Of a stretch of DNA of 64,000 nucleotides, positions 2,314-16,767 are shown piece after piece. Each line of letters begins with the position of its first letter. Within the stretch, counting starts at the first letter, position 1. The DNA comes from Mycolicibacterium phocaicum (GTDB taxonomy: Bacteria > Actinomycetota > Actinomycetes > Mycobacteriales > Mycobacteriaceae). The stretch lies in assembly GCF_010731115.1 (NCBI RefSeq), contig NZ_AP022616.1:1426001-1490000 (forward strand). The letters are read 5' to 3'. The translations under genes were made by a program, and so were the position numbers. The notes below the pieces were generated by a model. That model made no database searches and had not been told where the DNA came from. It saw nothing but the letters and a program-made list of their open reading frames with translations.

Positions 2314-2601
2314 GGGTGTGCCTCACTTATATATCGGTTGTCGTCCGGCATCGGGTGATCCCGGACCCTGGCGTCTGCTGCGTGCCGGACCCAACTCGGT
2401 TGTCCGAGATGGGACCGCCCGGCATGCGGTGGCGACCCGAGATCGAGCCGCTGTGCAGGCGCGCGAAGTCAACCCACGAATGCGGATTGCAGGTGGAAGT
2501 TTACACGCTTCCCAGGGGTGCTTTGTCCACAGTGCGCCGGTTATCCACAGATCGGGTCTCTGGGGGTGCCGAAGCCTCGGCCGGGGCGCTGAACTGGGCT
2601 G

Positions 2602-3090
2602 ATGCGAATCGTCGTGCTTGTGGTGCTCGCCACCCTCTGGCCGGCCGGCGTGGCGCGCGCCGACGGCGACCGGCTGGACTGGCCGCTGCGGCCGCGACCG
2701 GCGGTCGCGCGGGTGTTCGACGCGCCCCGGCCGAACTGGCAGCGCGGACATCGTGGCGTCGACCTCGCCGGCGCTGCCGGGCAGACCGTGTACGCCGCGG
2801 CCCCGGGCACCGTGGTGTTCGCCGGCGAGCTCGCGGGCCGGCCGGTGGTGTCGGTGGCTCATCCGGGTGGGCTGCGGACCAGCTACGAGCCGGTGCGTGC
2901 GGCGGTCCGGCCCGGCGCCGTCGTCGCCGCGGGTTCGCCGCTGGGCACGCTGGTCGCCGGCCATCCGGGCTGCGGCGGGAGCTGCCTGCACTGGGGCGCC
3001 ATGTGGGGTGCGTCGTCCAATGCCGACTACGTCGATCCCCTGGGCCTGCTCGCCACCACCACGATCCGCCTCAAGCCCGATGCCCCCTAA
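2602..3090 (+). CDS. secreted M23-family peptidase-like protein
   Basis: A 162-residue protein with a Sec signal peptide (about residues 1-20, ending in ARA) and a LytM/M23 fold: RGHRGVDLAG carries the H-x3-D zinc motif and LHWG the second histidine signature. M23 enzymes cut peptide cross-links of peptidoglycan outside the membrane. The protein is short, holding only the peptidase domain, like the M. tuberculosis homologue in the same place (Rv2891, from memory). It is divergent from rpsB and followed by a small tandem repeat. The ATG at 2602 gives a clean signal peptide. Whether it is active or a regulatory pseudo-peptidase cannot be told from sequence. Confidence 0.85.
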   Translation: MRIVVLVVLATLWPAGVARADGDRLDWPLRPRPAVARVFDAPRPNWQRGHRGVDLAGAAGQTVYAAAPGTVVFAGELAGRPVVSVAHPGGLRTSYEPVRAAVRPGAVVAAGSPLGTLVAGHPGCGGSCLHWGAMWGASSNADYVDPLGLLATTTIRLKPDAP

Positions 3091-3114
3091 CCGCGAGAAT
3101 CCCCTAACCGCGAG
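3084..3114. repeat. two 14-bp direct repeats at the M23 gene stop codon
   Basis: CCCCTAACCGCGAG occurs at 3084-3097 and again at 3101-3114, 17 bp apart; the first copy contains the TAA stop of the peptidase gene. Downstream, 3120-3170 contains short dyads (CGTGT/ACACG and CGCC/GGCG). The gap before xerC holds no gene. Confidence 0.6.
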
Positions 3115-3207
3115 CGGCCGTGTTTGTACGCCGACACGCCGCAATTGGCGTGCAGGATGCGCACGTTCACCAGCCGCGAGTGGCCCCGAAATGCTCGCGA
3201 CGGCGAG

Positions 3208-4104
3208 TTACGCCCGGGGGTGGGCCTGGTCGTGGACGGCACGCAACCGGGCGACGGTCACGTGCGTGTAGAGCTGCGTGGTCGCGAGCGACGAATGGCC
3301 GAGCAGCTCCTGCACCACCCGCAGGTCGGCGCCGCCTTCCAGCAGATGGGTGGCCGCGCTGTGCCGCAGGCCGTGTGGCCCGATGTCGGGCGCACCGTCC
3401 ACCGCCGAGATCGTCTGGTGCACGACGGTCCGCGCCTGACGGGGGTCGAGGCGCCGCCCCCGCGCCCCGAGCAGCAGCGCCGGGCCGGATGTCGCGACCG
3501 CCAGTGCGGGGCGGCCGTCGGACAGCCACGCCCGCAACGCGTGCGAGGCCGGCTCACCGAAGGGCACGGTGCGCTCCTTGTCGCCTTTACCGAGGACGCG
3601 CAGCAGCCGGCGACTCTGGTCGACGTCGTCGATGTCCAGGCCGCAGAGCTCGCTGACGCGGATGCCGGTGGCATACAGCATCTCGACGATCAGCCGATCC
3701 CGCAGCGCGAGCGGATCACCTTGCTCCGCACCGGAATTCGCCGCCGACATGGCATCGACCGCCTGATCCTGACGGAGCACGGCGGGCAGCGCACGGTGGG
3801 CCTTGGGGGTCTGCAGCCGCACGGCCGGATCGGTCTCGAGCAGCCCGCGCCGCACCGCCCACGCGGTGAAGGTCTTGACCGCCGACGTCCGGCGGGACAG
3901 CGTGGTCCGCGCCGCGCCCCTGCCGGCCTGCTCGGCGAGCCACGACCGCAGCGTCATGAGGTCAAGGTCGGCGATGGTGGCGCCGTCGCCGAGGAATTCC
4001 CCCAACGACCGCAGGTCACCCAGATAGGCACGCCGGGTGTGCTCGGAACGCCCGCATTCGAGTTCGAGGAACTGATCGAACTCGTCGAGAACCGCCTGGT
4101 GCAC
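3208..4104 (-). CDS. xerC: tyrosine recombinase XerC
   Basis: Site-specific recombinase that resolves chromosome dimers at dif with XerD. The 298 residues comprise an N-terminal core-binding SAM-like domain (about 1-90) and a catalytic domain with all key residues: R149 (ATGIRVSE), K173, H244 and R247 (HGLRH), H270 (LGHSS) and nucleophile Y279 (TTQLYTH). Starts at GTG 4104; length equals the family norm. The position between the M23 gene and viuB matches the mycobacterial backbone, so this is the housekeeping recombinase and not a phage integrase. Confidence 0.96.
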
Positions 4105-4172
4105 TCCCCTACGTTGGCAGAACGCCCGCCCGATCGCCCGTCACGCCACCCGTCGGTGGCCGAGCTGTGACC

Positions 4173-5348
4173 TCAAGCGTCGACGCGCCTGCCCGCACGT
4201 TCGGCAAACGCATCGAGTGCGGCAAGAACTTCCGCGGATCGCCATACGCGATTGCGGCGGCCGGCGGTGGTCTCGATGATTACGCCTGCCTCAACCAATG
4301 GGGTCAGCACTCGCTGGGCATGTGCGGTTTGGGCCACGATGCCCGCGTCCACGAGCAACGCGGCATTGATCACTGGGCGGCTGGTCAGTAGGTCGGCCAC
4401 CTTCCACGCTCCGGAATCCGCGCGCGCGGTGATCCTGTCGTTCCAGCTGGCGCGGATGGTGCGCAGGTCTGTGACCAGCCGCCGACCGTTGACCGTCGCG
4501 CGCACGCTCGCCTCGGCAAATAGCTCCACGATGGGCGCGGCGTCACCCTCTCGGTACGCCATCAGTGCCCCGATATATCCGTCCGTATCGGCCAGCAAGC
4601 CCGCCGACACCGGCACAGTGATCTGACGGGTCAGTGCCTTGTTGCGCAGCAGCGCTTGCACCAGTGCCCGCCCCGTGCGGCCGTTGCCGTCAGTGAACGG
4701 ATGCAGTGTCTCGAACTGCGCGTGGGCCACCGCGATGAGCGGCAGTACTGCAGTGTCGGTTCGCTTCGTGAACGCGATGAGGTCGTCGATCGCAGCGGGA
4801 ATGAGTTCGTGGCGGGGGCCTACGAACGTCGCTCCGATCGGTGTCGACCCGCGACCGATCCACACCGGCTCAGTACGCCACTGCCCCGGGGTGTGCCGCG
4901 GCTGATTAGCCATGAGCGCAGCGTGCATCGCCAGGATGGCAGCGGCGTCGATGGTCCCCGACAGCGCCAATGCCGCCTGCATCGCGGCGGTGTTCGCGAC
5001 GATGTCGGCGGCGTTGCGCTTGCCAGTGCCACCGACGAGCTCTTCCTCAGCGATAGATCGTGCCGACGCCGAGAGGTTCTCGATCTGTGAGCTGGCAGCG
5101 GACTCTGACCGCAGCAGGACTGCAGCGAACGGCGCGATCTCACCGCCCAGTTCGGCGTCGAACCGGGCAATCTCGCGGCTCGCCGCTTCAGCCTCGGCCA
5201 CCACGGCGTCGGGCAGTGCCAGGTCGAGTTCGGCGATGCTTGCGGGTATAGCCGGGTGATAGGTGCCGTACTTTGGTGGCATACCTGCGTAACGAACCTG
5301 CGGCTCCCAGCGCACATCCTCATAAGTGACGGCGCCAAGTGGATGCAC
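4173..5348 (-). CDS. Fic-family AMP transferase with N-terminal inhibitory motif and C-terminal winged helix
   Basis: A 391-residue Fic protein. The active-site motif HPFTDGNGRTGR is at 216-227, with the catalytic His first. An intact class II inhibitory motif S-x3-E-N lies at 86-91 (SSQIEN), so autoinhibition is built in and no separate antitoxin is needed. The last ~70 residues look like a winged helix, often DNA-binding in this group. Fic enzymes transfer AMP to hydroxyl groups of target proteins. The start is GTG 5348; no Shine-Dalgarno is visible, so a leaderless transcript is possible. Its first codons lie inside a repeated 10-12 bp element, suggesting autoregulation. The target is unknown, and the gene is an insertion relative to the xerC-viuB backbone. 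Confidence 0.9.
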   Translation of the reverse strand: MHPLGAVTYEDVRWEPQVRYAGMPPKYGTYHPAIPASIAELDLALPDAVVAEAEAASREIARFDAELGGEIAPFAAVLLRSESAASSQIENLSASARSIAEEELVGGTGKRNAADIVANTAAMQAALALSGTIDAAAILAMHAALMANQPRHTPGQWRTEPVWIGRGSTPIGATFVGPRHELIPAAIDDLIAFTKRTDTAVLPLIAVAHAQFETLHPFTDGNGRTGRALVQALLRNKALTRQITVPVSAGLLADTDGYIGALMAYREGDAAPIVELFAEASVRATVNGRRLVTDLRTIRASWNDRITARADSGAWKVADLLTSRPVINAALLVDAGIVAQTAHAQRVLTPLVEAGVIIETTAGRRNRVWRSAEVLAALDAFAERAGRRVDA

Positions 5349-5410
5349 ACCGACATTTTACATCCATTTATGCATTAAGTGGATGTAATATCAATCCTTG
5401 CATCCACTTA
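5337..5410. promoter_or_regulatory. four alternating copies of a CATCCACTTA element before the fic gene
   Basis: AAGTGGATGC at 5337-5346, TACATCCATTTA at 5359-5370, TAAGTGGATGTA at 5376-5387 and GCATCCACTTA at 5400-5410 alternate in orientation, with unit starts spaced 17-24 bp. The middle two form a near-perfect 29-bp dyad. The first copy contains the opening codons of the Fic protein, so a protein bound there would block initiation. Confidence 0.65.
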
Positions 5411-5423
5411 TCAAGTACGCGCC

Positions 5424-6590
5424 TCAATGCACCTCGACGCGACGCAAGGCATCCGGCGTCAGGTCGGACAGCGAACGGTAGCCGTCGATGGCCATGGTCA
5501 GGTCCGTTTCGGCCAGCAGGGACCGCACCACATGAACGACGCCGGCGGTGCCGGCGAGCGCCATTCCGTAGGCGTACGGCCGCCCGATGCCGACGGCGGT
5601 CGCCCCCAGCGCCAGTGCCTTGACGACGTCGGCACCGGTCCGGACGCCGGAGTCGAACAGCACCGGCAGACCGTCGGCCGCCGCGACGACCCCAGGGAGG
5701 CAGTCGATGGCCGGAATTCCGCCGTTGGCCTGCCGGCCGCCGTGGTTGGAGCAGTAGATGCCGTCGAGCCCGGCATCGCGGACGCGCCGCGCGTCGTCGG
5801 GATGGCAGATGCCTTTGACCAGCAGCGGCAGCTTCGTCAGCGACCGCAGCCACGGCAGGTCATCCCAGGTCAGCGGGTTGCCGAAGTCCTGCACCCACTG
5901 CATCACCACGCCCTGCGGGTTCTGCTCGGGCGGCGCGGGCAGTTTGGCCCGGAACACCGGGTCACTGGTGTAGTTGGACAGGCAGTGGCCGCGCAGCTGC
6001 GGGAAGTTGGCCGTCGAGAGGTCGCGGGGACGCCAGCCGGGCACCCAGGTGTCGAGGGTGACGACGATGCCCTGGTACCCCGCCGCCTCGGCACGGCTGA
6101 CCAGGCTGGCCGCGAGGTCCCGGTCTTTCGGGGTGTAGAGCTGGAAAAAGCCTGGGGTGTCACCGAATTCAGCGGCGACATCCTCCAGCGGATCACTGGT
6201 GAGCGTCGAGACCATCATGGGGACACCGGTTTGGGCCGCGGCCCGCGCGGCATGCAGGTCACCGTGGCCGTCTCGCGAGCAGATGCCCATGACGCCGATG
6301 GGCGCCAGGAACAGCGGCGACGGCAGCTTCAGCCCGAACAGGTCGACGGTCAGGTCGCGCTCGGTGGCCCCGACCAGCATGCGCGGCATGAGGCCCCAGC
6401 GGTCGAACGCGCTGACGTTGACGCGCTGCGTCCGCTCGTCACCGGCGCCGCCGGCGACGTACGACCAGATCGACGGCGGCATCGCGGCCTGGGCGCGCTC
6501 CTCGAGTTCTACGAACGAGATCGGCAGCGTCGGCACGACGCCGCCGAGTCCCTGCAGATAGATCTCGAGTTGGTAGTCACCGAACGCCAT
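5424..6590 (-). CDS. lactate 2-monooxygenase-type FMN alpha-hydroxyacid oxidase
   Basis: A 388-residue FMN enzyme of the L-lactate oxidase/2-monooxygenase family, which oxidises L-lactate to pyruvate and on to acetate and CO2. The start ([12 protein letters not shown]) and the whole length parallel the M. smegmatis enzyme as I remember it. [11 protein letters not shown] at 281-291 contains the proton-abstracting His283 and substrate-binding Arg286; [20 protein letters not shown] is the FMN phosphate site. Cytoplasmic. Transcribed alone, with a gap on both sides. Lactate is the expected substrate, but glycolate or mandelate cannot be excluded. Confidence 0.88.
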
Positions 6591-6663
6591 CAGGCCCGCC
6601 CTTCCGTTGCAACTTCGGCTGAGGATCGCACACTAGCGCCGGCCTACGCGTCGGCTTTTCGGC

Positions 6664-7509
6664 CTATGCCTCGGCTTCGGCCTTGGCCAGCTCCGCCTTC
6701 CACTGCCGGAAGGTTTCTTCGGTGCGGCCACGGCGCCAGTAGCCGGAGATGGACGCCCATTCGGCGCCGACGCCGCGCTCCTTACGCAGGTACGGCCGCA
6801 GGTTGTGCATGACGGCCTGCGCCTCGCCGTGGACGAACACCTGGACCTGGCCGGGCAGCCAGTCGGCCGCGCGGACCGCCGCGATGAGCGGCGCGTTGTC
6901 GCCGGCCTGGTCGTCCGGCACCAGGTCGGCGCGGCCGCCGCGGTGGATCCAGTGGATCGTCACGCCTGCGGGCGCGGTCAGGTCGAGCTCGTCATCGGGT
7001 CCGTCGACCTCGATGAAGGCCTGGCCGATCGCGTTGGGCGGCAACGCTTCCAGCGCGGTGCTCAGCGCCGGCAGCCCGGCTTCGTCGCCGGCCAGCAGGT
7101 GCCAGTCGGCGGCCGGGTTCGGGCTGTAGGCCCCATTTGGCCCCATGAGGTAAGCGGGGTCGCCCGGTGCCAGCGACGCCGCCCACGGTCCCGCCACACC
7201 GGTGTCGCCGTGCACCACGAAGTCGACGGTGAGTTCGCGCTGCTCGGTGTCGACGCTGCGCACGGTGTAGGTCCGCACCGTCGGGCGCTGGTCGGCCGGC
7301 AGCTCCTCGAAGCTGTCCAGCGTCAGGGGCTGCGCCAAGCCGGCCACCTCGACGCCCGCGGGCACGATGGCGAACTTGACGTAGGAATCTGTGAATTCCT
7401 TGGGAGTGAAGGTGTCGAACCCGTTGCCGCCGAACACAACACGAATCATGTGCGGGGTCAGGCGCTGGGTGCGGAGTACTTCGAACGTATGAATCGGACG
7501 GCCTGCCAC
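6664..7509 (-). CDS. viuB: siderophore-interacting FAD reductase (ViuB-like)
   Basis: Reduces ferric siderophores in the cytoplasm to release iron. The 281 residues show the SIP family layout: FAD-binding barrel with RTYTVR at about 88-93, then an NAD(P)H-binding domain with LLAGDEAGLPALS and the C-terminal ISGYWRRGRTEE signature. The M. tuberculosis homologue in this position is Rv2895c (viuB), from memory. Starts at GTG 7509. No iron-dependent regulator box was recognised in the short upstream gap. Confidence 0.88.
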   Translation of the reverse strand: MAGRPIHTFEVLRTQRLTPHMIRVVFGGNGFDTFTPKEFTDSYVKFAIVPAGVEVAGLAQPLTLDSFEELPADQRPTVRTYTVRSVDTEQRELTVDFVVHGDTGVAGPWAASLAPGDPAYLMGPNGAYSPNPAADWHLLAGDEAGLPALSTALEALPPNAIGQAFIEVDGPDDELDLTAPAGVTIHWIHRGGRADLVPDDQAGDNAPLIAAVRAADWLPGQVQVFVHGEAQAVMHNLRPYLRKERGVGAEWASISGYWRRGRTEETFRQWKAELAKAEAEA

Positions 7510-7546
7510 GCCTCGACTATACGAGCGGCACAGCCGCGGTGGTGGG

Positions 7547-8617
7547 CTACCGAGCCAGCACCGCCGCCGTGTACTTGGGCTTCCAGCCCGACGTCAGCAA
7601 CGCGCCGACGTTCGACTCGAGGTCGTCGCGCTTGGCCGTGTCGGTGTCGCGCACCGCGAAGATGAAGGCCGGTCCACTCCAGGTGATCTCGGCCAACCGT
7701 GCTAGCACCTGCAGGATTTGTCGCGCCTGTTCGTCCTGGCTGACGCCCCGGCTCTCCGGCGAGGACGTCGGGGCACCGAATTCGGTCATCCAGATTTTCT
7801 TGTCACCGTCTCCGTTGGCAGCCATCAAGTCGTGCACACGAGCCAGATCCGACCATCCGTTGTCACCGTCTTCGGCAATACCGCCCGGAAAAACGTAGGG
7901 ATGCATCGCGGTGGCGTCGAAGAAGTTCCGCGCCCCGTTGGCGTACATGTCGGCGACGAATGTCGTCGGCGCGTCGGGTCCGGCCGCGCGACTCAGCCCG
8001 GCGGTGATGACGGTGGCGTCGGGCTGAATGGCCTTGATCGCCGGGTACGCCGCCTTGAGCAGCCCGGTGTAGACCGCGGCGCGGTTGTCGGTGAAGCCGA
8101 AGAACAGCGGCAGGTTCGGCTCGTTCCAGATCTCCCAGTCGGCGACCCGGTCGCCGTAGCGTTGCACGACGGCCGTGACGAACGCGGCGTAGTCGGCCGG
8201 ATTGATCGGTGGCGCACTGAAATACGAGCCCGGCGCCCGAGCCCAGGCAGGGCTGTACGCGATCAGTCCGAGTACCTTCAGACCCCGCTTCCGGGAGCCG
8301 TTCACCCAATGGTCGACGTAGTGCCAATTATATTGACCCTTAACGGGTTCCACGATGTGCCAGTCGATCAGCACCCGCATCCACTCCGCCCGGGTCCGGG
8401 CGACGGCATCGAGTTCGCGGTCGGCGTCGGCGTCGCTCATCCAGGACTGCGGCGCACCGACACCGAACCCATAACCGCCCGCGGGCACCGCCGGCGTCGC
8501 CACCGGCGACGGGCGCAGCCACAGACACCCGCCGATCGACAGCCCGCCGAATAAGACGATGACGGCGGCGAACCGCCCGAAGCTGCGGCGTACCCGGCGG
8601 GTCACTAGAGCGGGCAC
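7547..8617 (-). CDS. exported glycoside hydrolase (GH5/GH39-like clan A barrel)
   Basis: A 356-residue protein with a basic N-terminus, a hydrophobic segment (about 17-33) containing a possible lipobox LSIGGC (Cys31), and a TIM-barrel glycosidase domain. WEIWNEPN holds the acid/base Glu166 and KIWMTEFG the nucleophile Glu279, the clan A pattern. It probably acts at the cell surface on a polysaccharide; the substrate is unknown. Starts 5 nt after the stop of the TetR gene, so the two are co-transcribed. Anchoring by lipid or by an uncleaved helix is undecided. Confidence 0.8.
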   Translation of the reverse strand: MPALVTRRVRRSFGRFAAVIVLFGGLSIGGCLWLRPSPVATPAVPAGGYGFGVGAPQSWMSDADADRELDAVARTRAEWMRVLIDWHIVEPVKGQYNWHYVDHWVNGSRKRGLKVLGLIAYSPAWARAPGSYFSAPPINPADYAAFVTAVVQRYGDRVADWEIWNEPNLPLFFGFTDNRAAVYTGLLKAAYPAIKAIQPDATVITAGLSRAAGPDAPTTFVADMYANGARNFFDATAMHPYVFPGGIAEDGDNGWSDLARVHDLMAANGDGDKKIWMTEFGAPTSSPESRGVSQDEQARQILQVLARLAEITWSGPAFIFAVRDTDTAKRDDLESNVGALLTSGWKPKYTAAVLAR

Positions 8618-8622
8618 GGCAT

Positions 8623-9228
8623 TCAGGCGGTTGCCGGCAGGACGGGCAGCGGATCGGTGGCGATACGGTGCGCCTCTTCGGCATCAATGCCCAAGGCGCG
8701 CAACACGAGTTCGGCAGTGGACGAGCCGGCCTCACGCCACGTCTGATGGCCTTCCAGCACCATCCACATGGCGCTGACGGTGGCGCCGAGGACCAGCGAG
8801 GCGACACTGTCGACGCCGACCTCGCCCAGCTGGTAGCGGCCGGCCGCGACACCTGCGTCGACATCACTGCTCGGCGGTCCGGTCATCCACGACCGCAACG
8901 TCTCCTCGCCGAGGCCGAACTTGACGGCGAACCTGCCCAGTTGCGGATTCTCGTGCGCGTACCGGACCCACATCCGGATGCCGGTGGCCAGCCTTGTCGC
9001 GGAATCGTCAATTGTGGCGAACGAAGCCGACACGCGCCGATGAAGGTCCGCGGTGACCTCACCGACGACCCGGTCGAACAAATCGTCCATCGAACCGACG
9101 TTCCGGTACAGGGTGCCGCGGGCGACGTTGGCCTCTTGCGCCAGCTCGCTGATGGTGACCTGCGTGGTGCCCTTCTCGACGAAGAGCCGCACTGCCGCCG
9201 TCACGATCCGGTCGTCAGTCGTGGTCAT
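8623..9228 (-). CDS. TetR-family transcriptional regulator
   Basis: A 201-residue repressor. The N-terminal helix-turn-helix reads VTISELAQEANVARGTLYRNVGSMDDLFDRVV (about 23-54); the C-terminal ligand domain is unassigned. It is divergent from the ring-cleavage operon starting at 9402, and two related palindromes lie between them, one over the operon's predicted promoter. It therefore very likely represses that operon and responds to a pathway aromatic. It shares a transcript with the glycosidase gene behind it. Confidence 0.93.
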   Translation of the reverse strand: MTTTDDRIVTAAVRLFVEKGTTQVTISELAQEANVARGTLYRNVGSMDDLFDRVVGEVTADLHRRVSASFATIDDSATRLATGIRMWVRYAHENPQLGRFAVKFGLGEETLRSWMTGPPSSDVDAGVAAGRYQLGEVGVDSVASLVLGATVSAMWMVLEGHQTWREAGSSTAELVLRALGIDAEEAHRIATDPLPVLPATA

Positions 9229-9310
9229 CGCGCCGCTCCTTCCGAACCGCCCGCATCACCTGTCCAATCCAAAACGATAGCAACAGTGATTGCACATATC
9301 GCCAGCCTTC

Positions 9311-9365
9311 TGAACAACTGTGTTCAAAATACACCCTTGACTTACGTTGAACACTTCTGTTCAAT
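9311..9365. promoter_or_regulatory. twin TetR operators and promoter of the ring-cleavage operon
   Basis: Operator 1 is TGAACA-N4-TGTTCA at 9311-9326; operator 2 is TTGAACA-N4-TGTTCAA at 9347-9364. They share one consensus and have centres 37 bp apart. A -35 box TTGACT (9337-9342) and a weak -10 TTCAAT (9360-9365, spacer 17) place operator 2 over the promoter reading toward 9402, the classic repression geometry. Confidence 0.75.
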
Positions 9366-9401: not shown

Positions 9402-11159
9402 ATGATCGAACCCTCGCCGCTCGACCGAGTCCCGGTATTGATCGCCGGCGGCGGACCCGTCGGCCTCACCCTGGCGCTGACCTTGGCCCGCCAGGGTGTG
9501 CCGGCGCTGCTCGTCGAACGCAATCCGTCGACGACGACCCACCCCAAGATGGACATCACCAACGGCCGCAGCATGGAGCTGTACCGGCAGCTCGGCATCG
9601 CCGACGATCTGCGCAAAGTGGCTGTGCCGGAAGACAATCCGTTCGACGTCGCGTGGGTCACCAAACTCAGCGGCTGGGAGTTGGCACGATTCCCCTACCC
9701 CGACGTGGTCGCGCGCCGGGACGCGATCCGCGCCTGCACCGACGGCACCATGACCTTGGAGCCGCCGATGCGAGTTTCGCAGGCGATTCTCGAACCGGCG
9801 CTCAAAGACATTCTGGAGACGCGCACCGACGTCGACGTCCGTTACGGCTGGGCCCTGCAGTCGTTTCGCCAGCATGCCGACGGCGTCGACGCCGTCATCA
9901 ACTGCAGCGCGACCGGCGAGACCCGCACCGTCCGGGCCGACTTTCTGGCCGGATGCGACGGCGCCGGCAGCATCGTGCGCCGCGGACTCGGAATTGCGTT
10001 GCACGACATCGACATCCGCCGGATGGCCGCGCGTGAGATCGGGCTGCGCAAGGTTCTCGCAGGGACCGCCCGGGAATTCATGGAACAGCGGCAGACGCCG
10101 ATGGACGGCCGCGTCTACATGGTGCATTTCACGTCCACGGCCCGCGAGGTGCTGGAGCGGTTCGGCACCACCTGGCACACGCAGTCCCCCGAAGGCTGGA
10201 CCCTGATCTCGCAGAACGACCGCGACACCTGGACGTTGCACACGCTGATCGGCATGGGCGTCAAGACCGAGGAAATCGATCCGAAGCAGTTCCTGTTCGC
10301 CCGACTGGGCGTCGAATTCGATTGCGACATCGTCGTTGCCAACGAGTGGCGGCCCCGGCTGTCGCTGGCCGATTCCTACGGGCACGGACGGGTGTGGCTG
10401 GCCGGCGACTCGGCTCACCAGGTCGTACCCAACGGCGGCTACGGCATGAACACCGGCGTGGGTGACGCTGTCGGATTGGGCTGGGCACTGGCGGCCGTCG
10501 TCAACGGGTGGGGCGGCCCGCGCCTGCTCAGCGCCTACGCCGCCGAGCGCCGCGCGGTCGGGATCGCCAACCGGGATGCCTCGGCCCGGCACACCCTGGT
10601 GCGGCTGGCCATTCAAATGGCAAACCGCGCAGCACTTTCCGGACAGGGCTGGGCCGGCGAGCGCGACCGGGCCCGGCTGGGACGCGAGATTCTGGACCTC
10701 GGCAATCTCGAAAACGAGGCCGACGGAATCGAATACGGATACCGCTACGACAATTCACCGGTCATCTGTACGGAACCGGGCCAACCGCCGGCCGGCCCCT
10801 CGCACCGGTACATCCCGGGCACCACGCCTGGCGCCCGGCCACCGAGCGTCTTCCTGCCCGACGGCACGCCGCTGTTCGACCTGTTCGGGCCCGGATTCAC
10901 CCTGCTGCGTTTCACCGACGTCGACGTCACAGAGCTGACGTCCGCGGCAGCGGATCGCGGCGTCCCCGTGACCGTCGTCGACGTCCGCGACGCGCACACC
11001 CGCAGGCTCTACGAACGCGACCTGGTGCTGATCCGTCCCGATCACCACGTGGCATGGCGCGGCGACCACAGCCCCACCGACGCGGCAGCCGTGATCGACA
11101 AGGTCCGGGGTGCGGTCGACACCGCAATCCGAACGTCGCAGAAGGAGTACTCGCGGTGA
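9402..11159 (+). CDS. FAD-dependent aromatic hydroxylase (MhpA/PheA/TfdB group)
   Basis: A 585-residue flavoprotein monooxygenase that would hydroxylate a phenolic ring to a catechol using NAD(P)H. It shows the N-terminal GGGPVG Rossmann motif, the DG motif (CDGAGS) and GDSAHQVVPNGGYGMNTGVGD, which binds the FAD ribityl chain. A C-terminal thioredoxin-like extension (about 450-585) matches the phenol hydroxylase group. First gene of the operon; ATG 9402 lies just downstream of the operator-promoter region, and its stop overlaps the next start (GTGA). Substrate unknown. Confidence 0.88.
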   Translation: MIEPSPLDRVPVLIAGGGPVGLTLALTLARQGVPALLVERNPSTTTHPKMDITNGRSMELYRQLGIADDLRKVAVPEDNPFDVAWVTKLSGWELARFPYPDVVARRDAIRACTDGTMTLEPPMRVSQAILEPALKDILETRTDVDVRYGWALQSFRQHADGVDAVINCSATGETRTVRADFLAGCDGAGSIVRRGLGIALHDIDIRRMAAREIGLRKVLAGTAREFMEQRQTPMDGRVYMVHFTSTAREVLERFGTTWHTQSPEGWTLISQNDRDTWTLHTLIGMGVKTEEIDPKQFLFARLGVEFDCDIVVANEWRPRLSLADSYGHGRVWLAGDSAHQVVPNGGYGMNTGVGDAVGLGWALAAVVNGWGGPRLLSAYAAERRAVGIANRDASARHTLVRLAIQMANRAALSGQGWAGERDRARLGREILDLGNLENEADGIEYGYRYDNSPVICTEPGQPPAGPSHRYIPGTTPGARPPSVFLPDGTPLFDLFGPGFTLLRFTDVDVTELTSAAADRGVPVTVVDVRDAHTRRLYERDLVLIRPDHHVAWRGDHSPTDAAAVIDKVRGAVDTAIRTSQKEYSR

Positions 11160-12289
11160 GCAGCAACACCATTGGCGCCCACAACGGCCTGCACAGCGCT
11201 CAGGGGGCCTTGGCCGGCGAGCACCCGGGACGCTCACGCAACCCGCTGATCAAGGTGACGGACCTTGCCTGGCTGGAATTCGACAAACCCGACCTGGCGC
11301 GCGCGGAGGCCTTCGCCCACGCATTCGGCTTCGGGACCGCACTGCGCACCGACACCGAATTGCATTTGCGCGGTAGCGATCCCGACGCGCCGTGCGTCCT
11401 GATCCGGCGCGGCCCGCATACCCGTTTCCGCGGCATGGCGTTCGCCGCCGCAGACGACGCGGACCTGGTGCGACTGGCCGACAAGACCGGCTCGCGGGTC
11501 ACTGCCCTACCGGAATCGATCGGCGGAACGGGCGTGCAACTGACCGACCCCAGCGGCATTCCGGTACGCGTGGTGTCCGGCACCCATCCGCTGAGCCCAC
11601 TGCCTGCGCAAGCACCGCACACCTTCAACCTCGGCCACGACGTCGAACGGATCAACGCCACCCAGCGGCCGCCCCGGGTGCCGACGACGGTGCAGCGCCT
11701 CGGCCACGTCGTCGTCCAGTCCACCAGATACCGTGCGGCACTGGACTGGTACCTCGATACGCTCGGCTTGATCGTCAGCGACTTCTTGTACTTCCCGGGA
11801 CAGCGCGGACGCGGTCCGACGATGAGCTTCATCCGATGTGACCGCGGTTCGATCCCGACCGACCATCACACGTTGGCGCTGGCGCTGGGACCGGCGAACC
11901 GCTACGTCCACTCGGCGTATCAGGTCAGTGACCTCGACGCCCTCGCCGCCGGCGGCGAATACCTCAAAGACCATGGCTACCAACGGTCCTGGGGCATCGG
12001 GCGGCACATCCAGGGCAGCCAGATCTTCGACTACTGGCGCGACCCCGACGGGTTCATGGTCGAGCACTTCACCGACGGCGACATGTTCGACAGCACCCTC
12101 GAACCCGGATGGGCGGAGTTCAGCGCCTCCGGACTGGCGCAGTGGGGACCGCCGGCCACCGCCGACTTCCTCGGCACCAGTCCCCGGCACGCGCGCGGCG
12201 AGGTGCGAGAACTGCTCACCGCACTGCGAAGCAACAACGAATTCGACGTCAACCGCCTCATCGGCCTACTGAAAGCAGCCAAGTCATGA
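11156..12289 (+). CDS. VOC-family extradiol ring-cleavage dioxygenase
   Basis: A 377-residue two-module vicinal oxygen chelate protein. Candidate Fe(II) ligands are His184 (RLGHVVVQ), His252 (VHSAYQV) and Glu303 (FMVEHF); their spacing is very close to that of BphC-type dioxygenases. It would cut the catechol made by the preceding hydroxylase, in the meta position. Starts at GTG 11156, which overlaps the upstream stop (GTGA) and has a good GAAGGAG. The next gene overlaps by ATGA, so translation is coupled along the operon. Confidence 0.87.
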   Translation: MSSNTIGAHNGLHSAQGALAGEHPGRSRNPLIKVTDLAWLEFDKPDLARAEAFAHAFGFGTALRTDTELHLRGSDPDAPCVLIRRGPHTRFRGMAFAAADDADLVRLADKTGSRVTALPESIGGTGVQLTDPSGIPVRVVSGTHPLSPLPAQAPHTFNLGHDVERINATQRPPRVPTTVQRLGHVVVQSTRYRAALDWYLDTLGLIVSDFLYFPGQRGRGPTMSFIRCDRGSIPTDHHTLALALGPANRYVHSAYQVSDLDALAAGGEYLKDHGYQRSWGIGRHIQGSQIFDYWRDPDGFMVEHFTDGDMFDSTLEPGWAEFSASGLAQWGPPATADFLGTSPRHARGEVRELLTALRSNNEFDVNRLIGLLKAAKS

Positions 12290-13224
12290 CCATCTCCGTT
12301 CTGCGCACCGCCGACGCCTGGTGGGTGCACACCGCCACCGGCGCCGCCAAGATCCCCACCGCCGCGACCACCACCGGCGCCCTGCTGGCCGACCGCGCCG
12401 CCATCGAAGCAGCTGCCTCCGACACCACCACGGTGCCGGTCGACAGTCTCGATCTGCTCTCCCCCGTGACCGCGCCCTGCCGCGTGGTGGCCCAGATGAC
12501 CAACTACGCCTCGCACGTCAAAGACGCCGGGATGGAACCGGCCTCGATCCCGTTGACGTTCTTCCGCAAGTCGTCGGCGTCGATCACCGGCCCGTCGGAC
12601 GCGATCGTCAAACCCAGCCACGTGCGGTTCCTGGACTACGAAGTGGAGATCGGTCTGGTCATCGGCACCGACATCCCGGTGGGCAGCACCATCGACGAGT
12701 CCAACCTCGCCGACTACGTGGCCGGGCTGGTGGTCACCAACGACGTGTCCGCGCGCGACATCCAGCTGCCCCAGACGCAGTTCTACGAAGCCAAGTCCTA
12801 CCCCACCTTCACGCCCGTCGGTCCGGCCCTGGTGCTGCTCACCGCCGCCGAGCTCAAGCGCTTCGGCGAGCTGCGCCTGCAGCTGCGCGTGAATGGCGAA
12901 CTGCGGCAGGACATGCGCGTCGCCGGTGACATGATCTACTCGCCGCTGCAGGCCCTGCAATCGCTGACCCGCTTCCAGGATCTCAGCGCCGGCGACCTGG
13001 TCCTGACCGGCACGCCCGTCGGCACCGCGCTGAGCGCACCGCACAAGGTGGTCGCATTCATCGGGTCGCTGCTGCCGCCTGCCATGAAATGGAAGGCCTT
13101 CTTCAAGAGCCAGGCGCGCAACCCGAAATACCTGCACGACGGTGACATCGTCGAGACGACCGTCGCCACCGACGACGGGGCCGTCGACCTCGGTGCCCAG
13201 CGCAACATCGTGAAGTACGCATGA
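12286..13224 (+). CDS. fumarylacetoacetate hydrolase (FAH) family protein
   Basis: A 312-residue member of the FAH fold. LDYEVEIGLVIG contains the metal-binding Glu119 and Glu121, and TNDVSARDIQ contains Asp153. Family members hydrolyse or decarboxylate oxo-acids from meta-cleavage pathways, which fits its place directly after the extradiol dioxygenase. ATG 12286 overlaps the previous stop by 4 nt; the end overlaps the ligase start at 13221. The precise reaction (C-C hydrolysis, hydration or decarboxylation) is open. Confidence 0.87.
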   Translation: MTISVLRTADAWWVHTATGAAKIPTAATTTGALLADRAAIEAAASDTTTVPVDSLDLLSPVTAPCRVVAQMTNYASHVKDAGMEPASIPLTFFRKSSASITGPSDAIVKPSHVRFLDYEVEIGLVIGTDIPVGSTIDESNLADYVAGLVVTNDVSARDIQLPQTQFYEAKSYPTFTPVGPALVLLTAAELKRFGELRLQLRVNGELRQDMRVAGDMIYSPLQALQSLTRFQDLSAGDLVLTGTPVGTALSAPHKVVAFIGSLLPPAMKWKAFFKSQARNPKYLHDGDIVETTVATDDGAVDLGAQRNIVKYA

Positions 13225-14612
13225 GCCCGAACCTGTTGTGGCCCAGCTACTCCAGCCCGAACGACCTCGCCACCATCGAATCCGTCCCGCTGTCCGAGCG
13301 GGGGCTGCCGAGCTCCACCTACGCAATGCTGGTGCGGGCCGCGAAGCTGTGGCCGGAGCGCATCGCTGTCACAGTCCTGCCCGACGGCACGCGGTGGGAG
13401 CACCCGGTGCGCCGGACTTTCGGCGAACTGCTTCACGACGTGCACCAGAGCGCAAACCTGCTGTACCACTTGGGCGTTCAGCGCGGTGACGCGGTCGCGC
13501 TCATCGCACCGAACTGCGATGAGCTGATCACCGCAACGCTGGCGGCCCAGGTGGCCGGCATCGCCGCGCCCATCAACGGCGCACTCTCGCCGGAGCACGT
13601 CAGCGAGCTGGTCCGGCGCTCCGGCGCTCGGGTCCTCATCACGGCGGACGCTCAACTCGACACCTCGACATGGGCGGTGGCAGAGCGCCTCGTCGACGCC
13701 GGCTTGATCGACACCATCCTGCTGATCGGACCGACCGGCGCCACACCCGTCGACGTCCCCGCGGTGCCGGGCGCGAAGGTCGACTACCTCACGCGACTGT
13801 CCGCCGCGCACGACGGCACTCGATTCCACGGCACCACACCGGAATCCACCGATCTGGCCGCGCTGTTCCACACCGGCGGCACCACCGGCGCACCGAAGCT
13901 GGCCGCCCACACACACGCCAACGAGGTGGCCGATGCCTGGATGATCGCCGCCAACACACCGCTCGACGAATCGTCGGTGTTGTTCGCCGCGTTGCCGCTG
14001 TTCCACGTCAACGCACTCGTGGTGACGCTGCTTGCGCCGCTGCTACGCGGACAGCAGGTGCTGTGGGCCGGCCCGCTCGGATACCGGGACGTGGGGCTGT
14101 ACGGCAACTTCTGGAAAATCGTTGAGCGCTACCGGATCTCCACCATGAGCGCGGTACCGACGGTGTACGCCGTGCTCAGCCAGCTCCCCGTCGATGCCGA
14201 CATCTCCAGTCTGCGGATGGCGATTGTCGGTGCCTCCGCGCTGCCGCCCGCGGTGCGCAGCGATTTCGAGTCGCACACCGGTGTCCCCCTGCTGGAGGGT
14301 TACGGCCTGACCGAGGCCACCTGCGCCAGCGCGCGCAGCTTCCCCGACCATCCCCGGCCCGGCTCGGCCGGTCAGCGGCTCCCCTACCAACAACTCAAGA
14401 CCGTCGACATCGACGACAACGGCGGCTGGCACGACCTGCCGCCCGGCCAGATCGGCACCCTCGTGGTCGGTGGCCCCACCGTGTTCCCGGGCTACGTCAC
14501 CGACCGCAGCTCTGACGGTTTCGTCCTCGACGGCAACGGCAAGCTCGTCGACGGTTGGCTCGACACCGGCGACCTCGCCTGGGTCGACGACGAGGGTTTC
14601 GTCCATCTGTAA
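13221..14612 (+). pseudogene. acyl-CoA ligase (AMP-binding) lacking its C-terminal domain
   Basis: 463 residues of an ANL-family acyl-CoA synthetase. The phosphate loop LFHTGGTTGAPK, GYGLTEAT and the adenine/ribose motif DGWLDTGDLAWVDDEGFVHL are all present. The frame then stops at TAA 14610-14612, just before the hinge motif; the ~100-residue C-terminal lid with the catalytic lysine is missing. The sequence continues at once as the interior of a cytochrome P450 gene in another frame. This is a deletion junction and not a natural short ligase. The N-terminal domain alone should not form thioesters. If intact it would have activated a ring-cleavage or side-chain acid. Confidence 0.8.
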
Positions 14613-15411
14613 TGTCGACGGTGTCGACGATCTCGCCGCAGCGCTGCCGTTGGCCGTCGTGCCCGACCTCATCGGTTGGCCGCGCGACCAGCGCGACCAC
14701 CTGGTTGCCTGGGCGGGCGCAACATTCGACGTACTCGGGCCGCTCAACTGGCAGGCGATCAAAGCGGTACCCAACACTGTGCTCATGCTGCGCTTCGCGC
14801 GGCGCGTGGTGCGCGAACGCAACGTCATCGAGGGCAGCATGGCAGATGAGCTGCTCGCCGCCGCAGACGAAGGCAAGTTGACGCACGACGAATGCCCGAA
14901 GCTGCTCGTCGACTACATCGCCCCGTCGATCGATACCACCATGAGCGCCATCGCCAATGCGTTGAAGCTCTTCGCGATGCACCCCGACCAGTGGCAACTG
15001 CTCAAGGAGGAACCCGGCCTCATGCCAAACGCCATCAATGAGGTCGTCCGCTGCGAGCCACCGCTGCGCGCCTTCGCGCGGTGCGCGGCACAGCAGACCG
15101 AGATCGCCGGCGTCCGGATCCCCTCCGGTGCACGGGTCCTGGTGATCTATGCCTCCGCCAACCGCGACGAACGCGAGTGGGAAGACCCCGAGGTCTTCGA
15201 CATCCGGCGTGACGCCGGCCGGCACCTCGGTTTCGGACACGGTGCCCACGCTTGTGCCGGACAGGGCCTGGCGCGCCTGGAAACAACCGCGATGTTGCGG
15301 GCGCTACTCGATCGCGTGGACCGGATAGAGCTGGCCGGTACGCCGACGTGGGCGGTCAACAACATCATCCGCCGCTATGAACGCCTGCCGCTCAAGCTGA
15401 TTGCTGCTTAG
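14611..15411 (+). pseudogene. cytochrome P450, N-terminal third missing
   Basis: About 266 codons that begin abruptly inside a P450 (NVDGVDDLAAALPLAVVPDLIGW) and run to the end. The I-helix APSIDTT, the E-x-x-R of NEVVRCEPPLR and the heme loop FGHGAHACAG are intact. No start codon or ribosome binding site lies in frame at the junction, and the frame differs from that of the ligase fragment, so translation is unlikely. Roughly 130-150 N-terminal residues are lost. The ferredoxin directly behind is its natural electron donor. An assembly error is an alternative explanation. Confidence 0.8.
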
Positions 15412-15482: not shown

Positions 15483-15680
15483 ATGAAAGTAAACGTCGAC
15501 TACAACCGCTGCGAGGGCCACGGCGTGTGCGTCGCACAAGCACCCGACGCCTTCGAACTCGATGACGATGGAAATCTGAACTACCACTTCGAGGGGCGAG
15601 AGGTCCCGACCGGAATCGAGCCAGCGGTTCGCTCGGCAGTCGATGCGTGCCCGGTCGCGGCGCTCAGCGAGGCACCCTGA
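15483..15680 (+). CDS. [3Fe-4S]-type ferredoxin, P450 partner
   Basis: A 65-residue small ferredoxin starting [21 protein letters not shown] and ending with DACPVAAL. The C-x2-H-x2-C ... C-P pattern lacks the fourth ligand of a 4Fe-4S cluster, as in mycobacterial and Streptomyces ferredoxins that feed class I P450s. It lies 71 bp after the P450 remnant and one base before the dehydrogenase start. It may now lack its partner, although other P450s exist in the genome (one at 50 kb). Confidence 0.92.
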
Positions 15681-15681
15681 G

Positions 15682-16767
15682 ATGGTTCAGACAGTGCGTG
15701 GTGTGATTTCCCGGGCCAAGAAGCAGCCCATCGAGCTCGTCGACATCGTCATCCCCGATCCCGGACCCGGTGAGGTCATCGTGGACATCATCGCGTGCGG
15801 GGTGTGCCATACCGACCTCACCTACCGCGAAGGCGGCATCAACGACGAGTATCCGTTCCTGCTCGGCCACGAAGCCGCCGGCACCGTCGAGTCCGTCGGC
15901 GAGGGCGTCACCCACGTCGCACCCGGCGACTTCGTCATCCTCAACTGGCGCGCCGTGTGCGGTGAATGCCGCGCCTGCAAACGCGGCCGCCCCCACCTGT
16001 GCTTCGACACCTTCAACGCCACCGGGAAAATGACCCTCACCGACGGCACCGAACTGACCCCCGCCCTGGGCATCGGCGCCTTCGCCGACAAAACCCTCGT
16101 ACACGAACGCCAGTGCACCAAGGTCGATTCTGAAGCCGACCCGGCCGTCGCCGGCCTGCTCGGCTGCGGGGTCATGGCCGGCATCGGCGCCGCCATCAAC
16201 ACCGGCGCCGTCACCCGTGATGACACCGTCGCGGTCATCGGCTGCGGCGGCGTCGGCGACGCCGCCATCGCCGGCGCCGCCCTCGTCGGCGCCAAACGCA
16301 TCATCGCCGTCGACACCGACAACCAGAAGCTGCACTGGGCCCGCGACTTCGGCGCCACCCACACCATCAACGCCCGCGACCTCGACCCCGTCGAAACCAT
16401 TCAGGACCTCACCGACGGCAACGGCGCCGACGTCGTCATCGACGCCGTCGGCCGCCCCGAAACCTGGAAACAAGCGTTCTACGCCCGCGACCTCGCCGGA
16501 ACCGTTGTCCTCGTTGGTGTTCCGACACCCGACATGACACTCGAAATGCCGCTCATCGACTTCTTCTCCCACGGCGGATCCCTCAAATCATCCTGGTACG
16601 GCGACTGCCTACCCGAACGCGACTTCCCCACCCTCATCAGCCTCTACCTCCAAGGCCGCCTCCCACTGGAGAAATTCGTCACCGAACGCATCGGACTCGA
16701 CCAGATCGAAGACGCCTTCCACAAAATGCACAGCGGCGAAGTCCTGCGCTCGGTGGTGGTCCTCTAG
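15682..16767 (+). CDS. mscR: S-(hydroxymethyl)mycothiol dehydrogenase / S-nitrosomycothiol reductase
   Basis: A 361-residue zinc alcohol dehydrogenase, highly similar as I recall it to M. tuberculosis AdhE2/MscR (Rv2259). Catalytic zinc ligands are Cys42 and His63-Glu64; the structural zinc site has Cys93, 96, 99 and 107; [20 protein letters not shown] binds NAD. It oxidises the mycothiol-formaldehyde adduct to S-formylmycothiol. Its place behind a P450 and ferredoxin suggests removal of formaldehyde from oxidative demethylation. ATG 15682 is chosen over an upstream in-frame start inside the ferredoxin gene. Its stop shares a CTAG with the stop of dprA. Confidence 0.93.

What the first reader, a model, noticed from the sequence alone, without database searches (positions are those of the whole stretch)
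14540..14680. One junction truncates both an acyl-CoA ligase and a P450
The ligase reading frame runs normally to DEGFVHL and stops at TAA 14610-14612, exactly where its hinge and C-terminal lid should begin. From the very next base, in another frame, comes the interior of a cytochrome P450 (VDGVDDLAAALPLAVVPDLIGW) without start codon or its first 130-150 residues. Two neighbouring genes losing facing ends is the signature of one deletion, at least about 0.7 kb, possibly more with whole genes lost. The rest of the operon remains intact, so the event may be recent.
Basis: partly seen in the sequence, partly recalled or inferred. Interest (0 to 1): 0.7.

Follow-up and report, generated by a model that had tools for sequence, protein, structure and literature searches.

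The report
One deletion broke three operon genes
In this mycobacterium a single piece of DNA was lost from a gene cluster that probably breaks down aromatic compounds, cutting off the end of one enzyme gene, the start of another and the whole gene between them; it is an ordinary and probably fairly recent gene loss.

Summary
Confirmed: the acyl-CoA ligase ORF (13221-14612) stops at 463 aa, and homology to the interior of a P450 starts at 14612 in another frame. In the five closest relatives fetched, a full ligase (625-627 aa), a second FAD monooxygenase (FMO2) and a full P450 lie there in the same order. The window lacks the ligase's last 164 aa, all of FMO2 and the P450's first 131 of 396 aa. 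The relative with the best gene-order match (L055) has 2,507 bp between the breakpoints, the other four 2,584-9,323. The missing segment is not elsewhere in the genome. Among the listed rows of 396 genus genomes, only this one matches a 131-bp junction query from end to end. The joint has one or two unassigned bases and no repeat at it, as in end joining; the TAA is made by the joint. A 97%-identical full-length ligase is on record, and both remnants are open with few private changes, so the event looks recent; dN/dS does not settle it. Raw reads were not available. Ordinary gene loss.

The parts
14608..14615 (+). Deletion junction: homology to relatives ends at 14608-14610 on the left and starts at 14612-14615 on the right; base 14611 unassigned; the TAA stop 14610-14612 is formed by the joint
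13221..14612 (+). Truncated acyl-CoA ligase, 463 aa: AMP-binding domain only (PF00501); the last 164 aa with the C-terminal domain (PF13193) lost
14612..15411 (+). N-truncated cytochrome P450 remnant (265 codons from 14614), haem-binding region kept, first 131 of 396 residues lost; no start codon at the joint in its frame (next in-frame candidates TTG 14650, GTG 14659; GTG 14470 lies in ligase sequence)
9402..11159 (+). FMO1, FAD-dependent aromatic hydroxylase (PF01494, NF004780), frame intact
11156..12289 (+). Extradiol-dioxygenase-like protein of the glyoxalase superfamily, frame intact (start inferred)
12286..13224 (+). Fumarylacetoacetate-hydrolase family protein, frame intact (start inferred)
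15483..15680 (+). Single-cluster ferredoxin, probable former partner of the P450, frame intact
15682..16767 (+). S-(hydroxymethyl)mycothiol dehydrogenase (TIGR03451, over cut-off), frame intact
8623..9228 (-). Divergent ORF upstream of FMO1 that looks TetR-like by eye (not scanned against any library)
   Evidence: ORF only

Best explanation
A single deletion of about 2.5 kb (possibly more) removed the last quarter of the ligase, the whole second FAD monooxygenase gene (FMO2, MhpA-like) and the first third of the P450. The two ends were joined directly, with one or two extra bases and no repeat at the joint, as Ku-dependent end joining does; the joint happens to spell TAA and ends the ligase. 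Shown: the sequence, the order in relatives, the absence of the segment elsewhere in the genome, a Ku gene. Inferred: that it was one event, the repair route, and the effect. A ligase without its C-terminal domain and a P450 without its first 131 residues should both be dead (established knowledge of these families, recalled), so the strain should have lost this branch of an aromatic degradation pathway. The branch may have been an O-demethylation, since the P450 is CYP199-like and a ferredoxin and a mycothiol-dependent formaldehyde dehydrogenase follow it. FMO1, the dioxygenase and the hydrolase remain readable.
For: Of 16 relatives' loci examined, the P450 is full length in 16 and the ligase full length in all 10 that have one. 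Named loci: of 54, 51 align through ligase residue 463 and in these 51 the frame runs on at least 141 aa; a P450 follows in 24, with FMO2 between in 22 of the 24. Breakpoint distance 2,507-9,323 bp in the five closest relatives fetched. Missing segment not elsewhere in the genome: 6 weak matches, the best 69% to a paralogous P450. No repeat at the joint. Ku present. A 97%-identical 627-aa ligase and a 95%-identical 396-aa P450 are on record. Both remnants are open; private residues 5 of 463 and 4 of 265, within the range of close relatives.
Against: No raw reads. The ancestor's layout is unknown: gaps in relatives vary, so the size is bracketed, not measured, and one event cannot be told from two overlapping ones. 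In one search the window's ligase tip has the highest dN/dS of three in 7 of 10 triples (0.18-0.46); the intact FAH gene does so in 6 of 10, but the intact FMO1 (1 triple) and dioxygenase (3 triples) never do (0.06-0.09), so mild relaxation of the ligase, and thus a less recent event, is not excluded. In L055 a 10-bp word shared by the two breakpoint regions exceeds the longest of 40 shuffles (9), though it lies 41 bp before one and 13 bp after the other. LigD was not searched.
Confidence: 0.9

Rival explanations
1. Assembly error: the real genome still holds the missing sequence and the assembler skipped it.
For: Reads were not available; the closest sequences on record (97% ligase, 95% P450) are intact.
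Against: Collapse normally needs a repeat at both ends, and none lies at the joint; the longest common word within 50 bp of both breakpoints is 8-10 bp in five relatives (longest of 40 shuffles 9-11; only L055 exceeds its own, 10 against 9) and lies off the joint. The genome is one 5.85-Mb contig rated 100% complete. The 463-aa protein is recorded from 2 contigs, but whether the second is an independent assembly is not shown.
Confidence: 0.05
2. Stepwise decay: two or more deletions, or an inserted element that later left with its flanks, produced the joint.
For: What lies between ligase and P450 varies in relatives, from 916 to 9,323 bp, with extra genes in L109.
Against: No remnant of FMO2 or of any insertion lies between the two homologies; one or two bases are unassigned.
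Confidence: 0.08
3. Recombination with a different operon copy joined the ligase of one cluster to the P450 end of another.
For: Divergence from L109 differs on the two sides (dS 0.22 ligase, 0.44 P450).
Against: From L055 the two sides are alike (dS 0.31 and 0.34), and L055 has both genes and the following ferredoxin in the same order. No homology at the joint to recombine through.
Confidence: 0.05
4. The shortened ligase is a working, selected form and not a pseudogene.
For: 463 codons stay open with 5 private residues, the same number as in the 97%-identical full form.
Against: Of the 120 homologues listed (of 2,955 found) only this one is so short; the other 119 have 578-654 aa. The lost part holds the C-terminal domain. 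A recent event explains the lack of decay equally well.
Confidence: 0.03

Closest known systems
Ordinary pseudogene-forming deletions joined by non-homologous end joining (recalled; passages of PMC8656161, report the pathway in M. smegmatis)
   Same: Direct joint without a repeat at it, gene ends lost on both sides, Ku present
   Different: No difference seen; the repair route is inferred from the joint alone
Intact operon of Mycolicibacterium sp. lyk4-40-TYG-92 (L055)
   Same: FMO1, dioxygenase, FAH, ligase, P450 and ferredoxin in the same order; 87-96% protein identity
   Different: L055 has the full 627-aa ligase, FMO2 and the full P450; its contig ends just after the ferredoxin
CYP199A-type P450s (CYP199A4, PDB 4dnz)
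   Same: Among the closest solved relatives of the full-length homologue in L055 (254 bits, second row)
   Different: The window's copy lacks the first third; that CYP199A4 is an aryl O-demethylase is recalled, from no call

Membership tests
Two-domain acyl-CoA ligase (PF00501 + PF13193) | N-terminal AMP-binding domain | tested here: met
   PF00501 at residues 39-425, 231 bits
Two-domain acyl-CoA ligase (PF00501 + PF13193) | C-terminal AMP-binding_C domain | tested here: not met
   Not found in the window's protein; found at 483-558 in the L055 homologue
Cytochrome P450 (PF00067) | C-terminal part with the haem-binding region | tested here: met
   PF00067 at residues 72-234 of the remnant; FGHGAHACAGQ present in the window's copy (motif role recalled)
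Cytochrome P450 (PF00067) | Complete N-terminal part and a start codon | tested here: not met
   First 131 of 396 residues missing; no start codon at the joint in frame
Deletion joined by non-homologous end joining | No direct repeat or microhomology at the joint | tested here: met
Deletion joined by non-homologous end joining | Ku in the genome | tested here: met
   PF02735, 182 bits, over cut-off
Deletion joined by non-homologous end joining | LigD in the genome | not tested
   Not searched

The most novel reading that the evidence does not exclude
The deletion was favoured: by removing the CoA-ligase, ring-hydroxylase and P450 steps it turned a long aromatic pathway into a short FMO1-dioxygenase-hydrolase route, and the 463-aa ligase domain still does something (for example adenylation only), which is why it stays clean.
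Probability: 0.04. Interest if true: 0.4.

Novelty: new member of a known kind. Interest (0 to 1): 0.15.

Why it matters
It corrects annotation: this strain should not be credited with this P450, this ligase or the second monooxygenase of the operon. It also gives a clean deletion joint in a catabolic operon whose gene content varies among mycobacteria by whole genes. It does not change any general view.

Tried and rejected
Relocation of the lost segment: rejected; one search gave 6 matches in the genome, all weak (33-319 bp; the best 69% to a paralogous P450). The fused state as an ancestral arrangement: rejected; among the listed rows of 396 genomes only the own genome matches over the whole joint (both lists were cut). 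Some rows cross the joint by part: G354 (query 27-131), G100 (1-68), G101 (1-71), G201 (1-76) and G173 (60-131). Of these I examined G354, G100 and G173: their P450s are full length (G354's matches positions 6-398 of 401 and lies directly after FAH), and G100's ligase is full length. G101 and G201 were not examined. Repeat-mediated deletion: rejected, with the 10-bp word in L055 noted under evidence against. Stop-start coupling at TAATG (ATG 14612): that ATG opens an 89-aa frame that is not the P450's. Dating by dN/dS: inconclusive, as most of the branch is probably older than the event. The P450 protein search did not list the window's own remnant, so it says nothing about the joint. Literature: searches (1 paper; 10 of 34 shown; 6 of 61 shown) were seen as search listings with abstract starts only; one search found 0 papers; PMC8656161 was seen as passages only. 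None of the titles and abstract starts shown names this locus; the strain's name is not known to me, so it was not searched for.

Full report
Observation. The ligase ORF runs from 13221 to a TAA at 14610-14612 (463 aa, ending DEGFVHL), and P450 sequence in another frame follows to 15411. Pfam gives the ligase only its AMP-binding domain, and matches the P450 piece over its residues 72-234. The full-length homologue L055:10001-11881 also has the AMP-binding_C domain, at residues 483-558.

What lay between. tblastn of the operon's proteins on fetched relatives gives extradiol dioxygenase, FAH, ligase, FMO2, P450 in this order in the five closest ones fetched (L055 Mycolicibacterium sp. lyk4-40-TYG-92, L056 M. 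llatzerense, L083/L112 Mycobacterium sp. ST-F2, L109, L111). FMO1 precedes them in L055 and L109; only its 3' end lies in L056, at a contig end; it was not matched in L083/L112 or L111. FMO2 is an FAD monooxygenase of the MhpA-like subfamily NF004829. One search was given 16 relatives' loci (some are the same places as named loci) and the own locus. The P450 match runs from position 1-10 to 398-401 of 401 in 16 of 16. The ligase is full length in the 10 that have it (ends at 619-627 of 627) and unmatched in 6 (L115, L116, L117, L118, L122, L138). FMO2 is present in 14 of 16 (not L119, L138). Content thus varies by whole genes; broken ends were seen only in the window. Of the 54 named loci, 51 align through ligase residue 463 (L106, L107 and L108 do not and were left out), and in these 51 the frame continues 141 aa or more. 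A P450 (over 50% identity, same strand, within the flank held) follows in 24 of 51, with FMO2 between in 22 of the 24.

Size. The distance between the two breakpoints is 2,507 bp in L055, 2,584 in L056, 3,292 in L083, 4,331 in L111, 9,323 in L109, and 916 in the more distant L119, which has no FMO2. L055 also shares the ferredoxin after the P450, so about 2.5 kb is the best estimate. The loss would be 164 ligase codons, the whole FMO2 gene and 131 P450 codons (396-aa numbering).

Joint. In the best rows, left homology ends at 14608-14610 and right homology starts at 14612-14615. Base 14611 is unassigned, and perhaps also 14610, since P0002 has an arginine, not a cysteine, as the next residue. 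The stop is made by the joint. No common word lies at the joint; the longest within 50 bp of both sides is 8-10 bp in five relatives, against the longest of 40 shuffles of 9-11. In L055 the 10-bp word exceeds its shuffles (9) but lies 41 bp before one breakpoint and 13 bp after the other, so recombination there would give another joint. Ku is present; LigD was not searched. End joining is the inferred route; passages of PMC8656161 report the pathway in M. smegmatis.

Real or artefact. The genome is a single contig of 5,853,197 bases. The lost segment is not found elsewhere in it: 6 matches, the best 69% over 319 bp to a paralogous P450. The truncated protein P0001 is recorded from 2 contigs, the longest of this genome's length; the other's origin is not shown. 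With no repeat at the ends an assembly collapse is unlikely. Reads were not available.

Spread and age. In one search, 171 of 396 genus genomes have a match to the two broken genes at E up to 1e-40. In the rows listed only the own genome aligns over both genes in one piece (G354 and G100 reach 33 and 8 bases across). A 131-bp query over the joint matched in full only in this genome among the rows listed; G354, G100, G101, G201 and G173 cross the joint in part. G354, G100 and G173 have full-length P450s, and G100 a full-length ligase; G101 and G201 were not examined. Of 120 listed ligase homologues (2,955 found) 1 has 463 aa and 119 have 578-654 aa. P0002, 97% identical, is full length; its source code is lgn and it has no name. 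In the eight-sequence alignments the window's ligase has 5 private residues of 463 (P0002 also 5; the others 0-55), and its P450 piece 4 of 265 (others 1-9, the distant P0137 30). Tip dN/dS, 10 triples each: ligase 0.18-0.46 in the window against 0.12-0.42 in relatives; P450 piece 0.12-0.18 against 0.04-0.32; FAH 0.14-0.43 in the window. The window's tip is the highest of three in 7 of 10 triples for the ligase, 4 of 10 for the P450 piece and 6 of 10 for the intact FAH. For the intact dioxygenase (3 triples, 0.06-0.09) and FMO1 (1 triple, 0.09) it is never the highest. So a mild relaxation of the ligase is possible but not shown. A recent event fits; the data cannot date it.

Function. The full P450's best solved matches are a chain named only cytochrome P450 (7n60) and then CYP199A4. 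The operon ends in a ferredoxin and a mycothiol-dependent formaldehyde dehydrogenase (TIGR03451 over cut-off), one of three over cut-off in the genome. An O-demethylating P450 module feeding an aromatic pathway is a reasonable guess, not a test. Against it, ferredoxin and dehydrogenase were not matched in the stretches held around the P450 of L109, L111, L112/L083 or L056. The genome also holds a full-length P450 of 396 aa about 70% identical to the remnant (G000:C1:2257488), which might cover part of the lost role; other P450s of the genome were not surveyed.

Verdict. It is ordinary gene loss, of low general interest.

Noticed in passing
L109:16019-17139 (G222): The extradiol dioxygenase match is split into two pieces (residues 1-186 and 187-374), as by a frameshift.
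   Followed up: no
L057:13060-13853 (Mycobacterium fragae): The P450 match lies in two overlapping pieces, as by a frameshift or sequencing error.
   Followed up: no
L115, L116, L117, L118, L122, L138: No ligase is matched in the operon (in L138 no FMO2 either) while the other matched genes are full or nearly full length, so gene content varies by whole genes.
   Followed up: partly
L109:4777-13225: Besides FMO2, extra ORFs lie between ligase and P450; by eye they look like an SDR, an acyltransferase and MmpL/ABC-type membrane proteins (not scanned).
   Followed up: no
L090 after 11395 (Mycobacterium angelicum): The ligase frame continues for 1692 codons, perhaps a fusion with a larger enzyme.
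   Followed up: no
P0224: A 279-aa relative of the P450 in Mycobacterium sp. 1245111.1, shorter than the roughly 390-400 aa of nearly all listed hits (P0144, 294 aa, is the other short one), may be another truncated copy.
   Followed up: no
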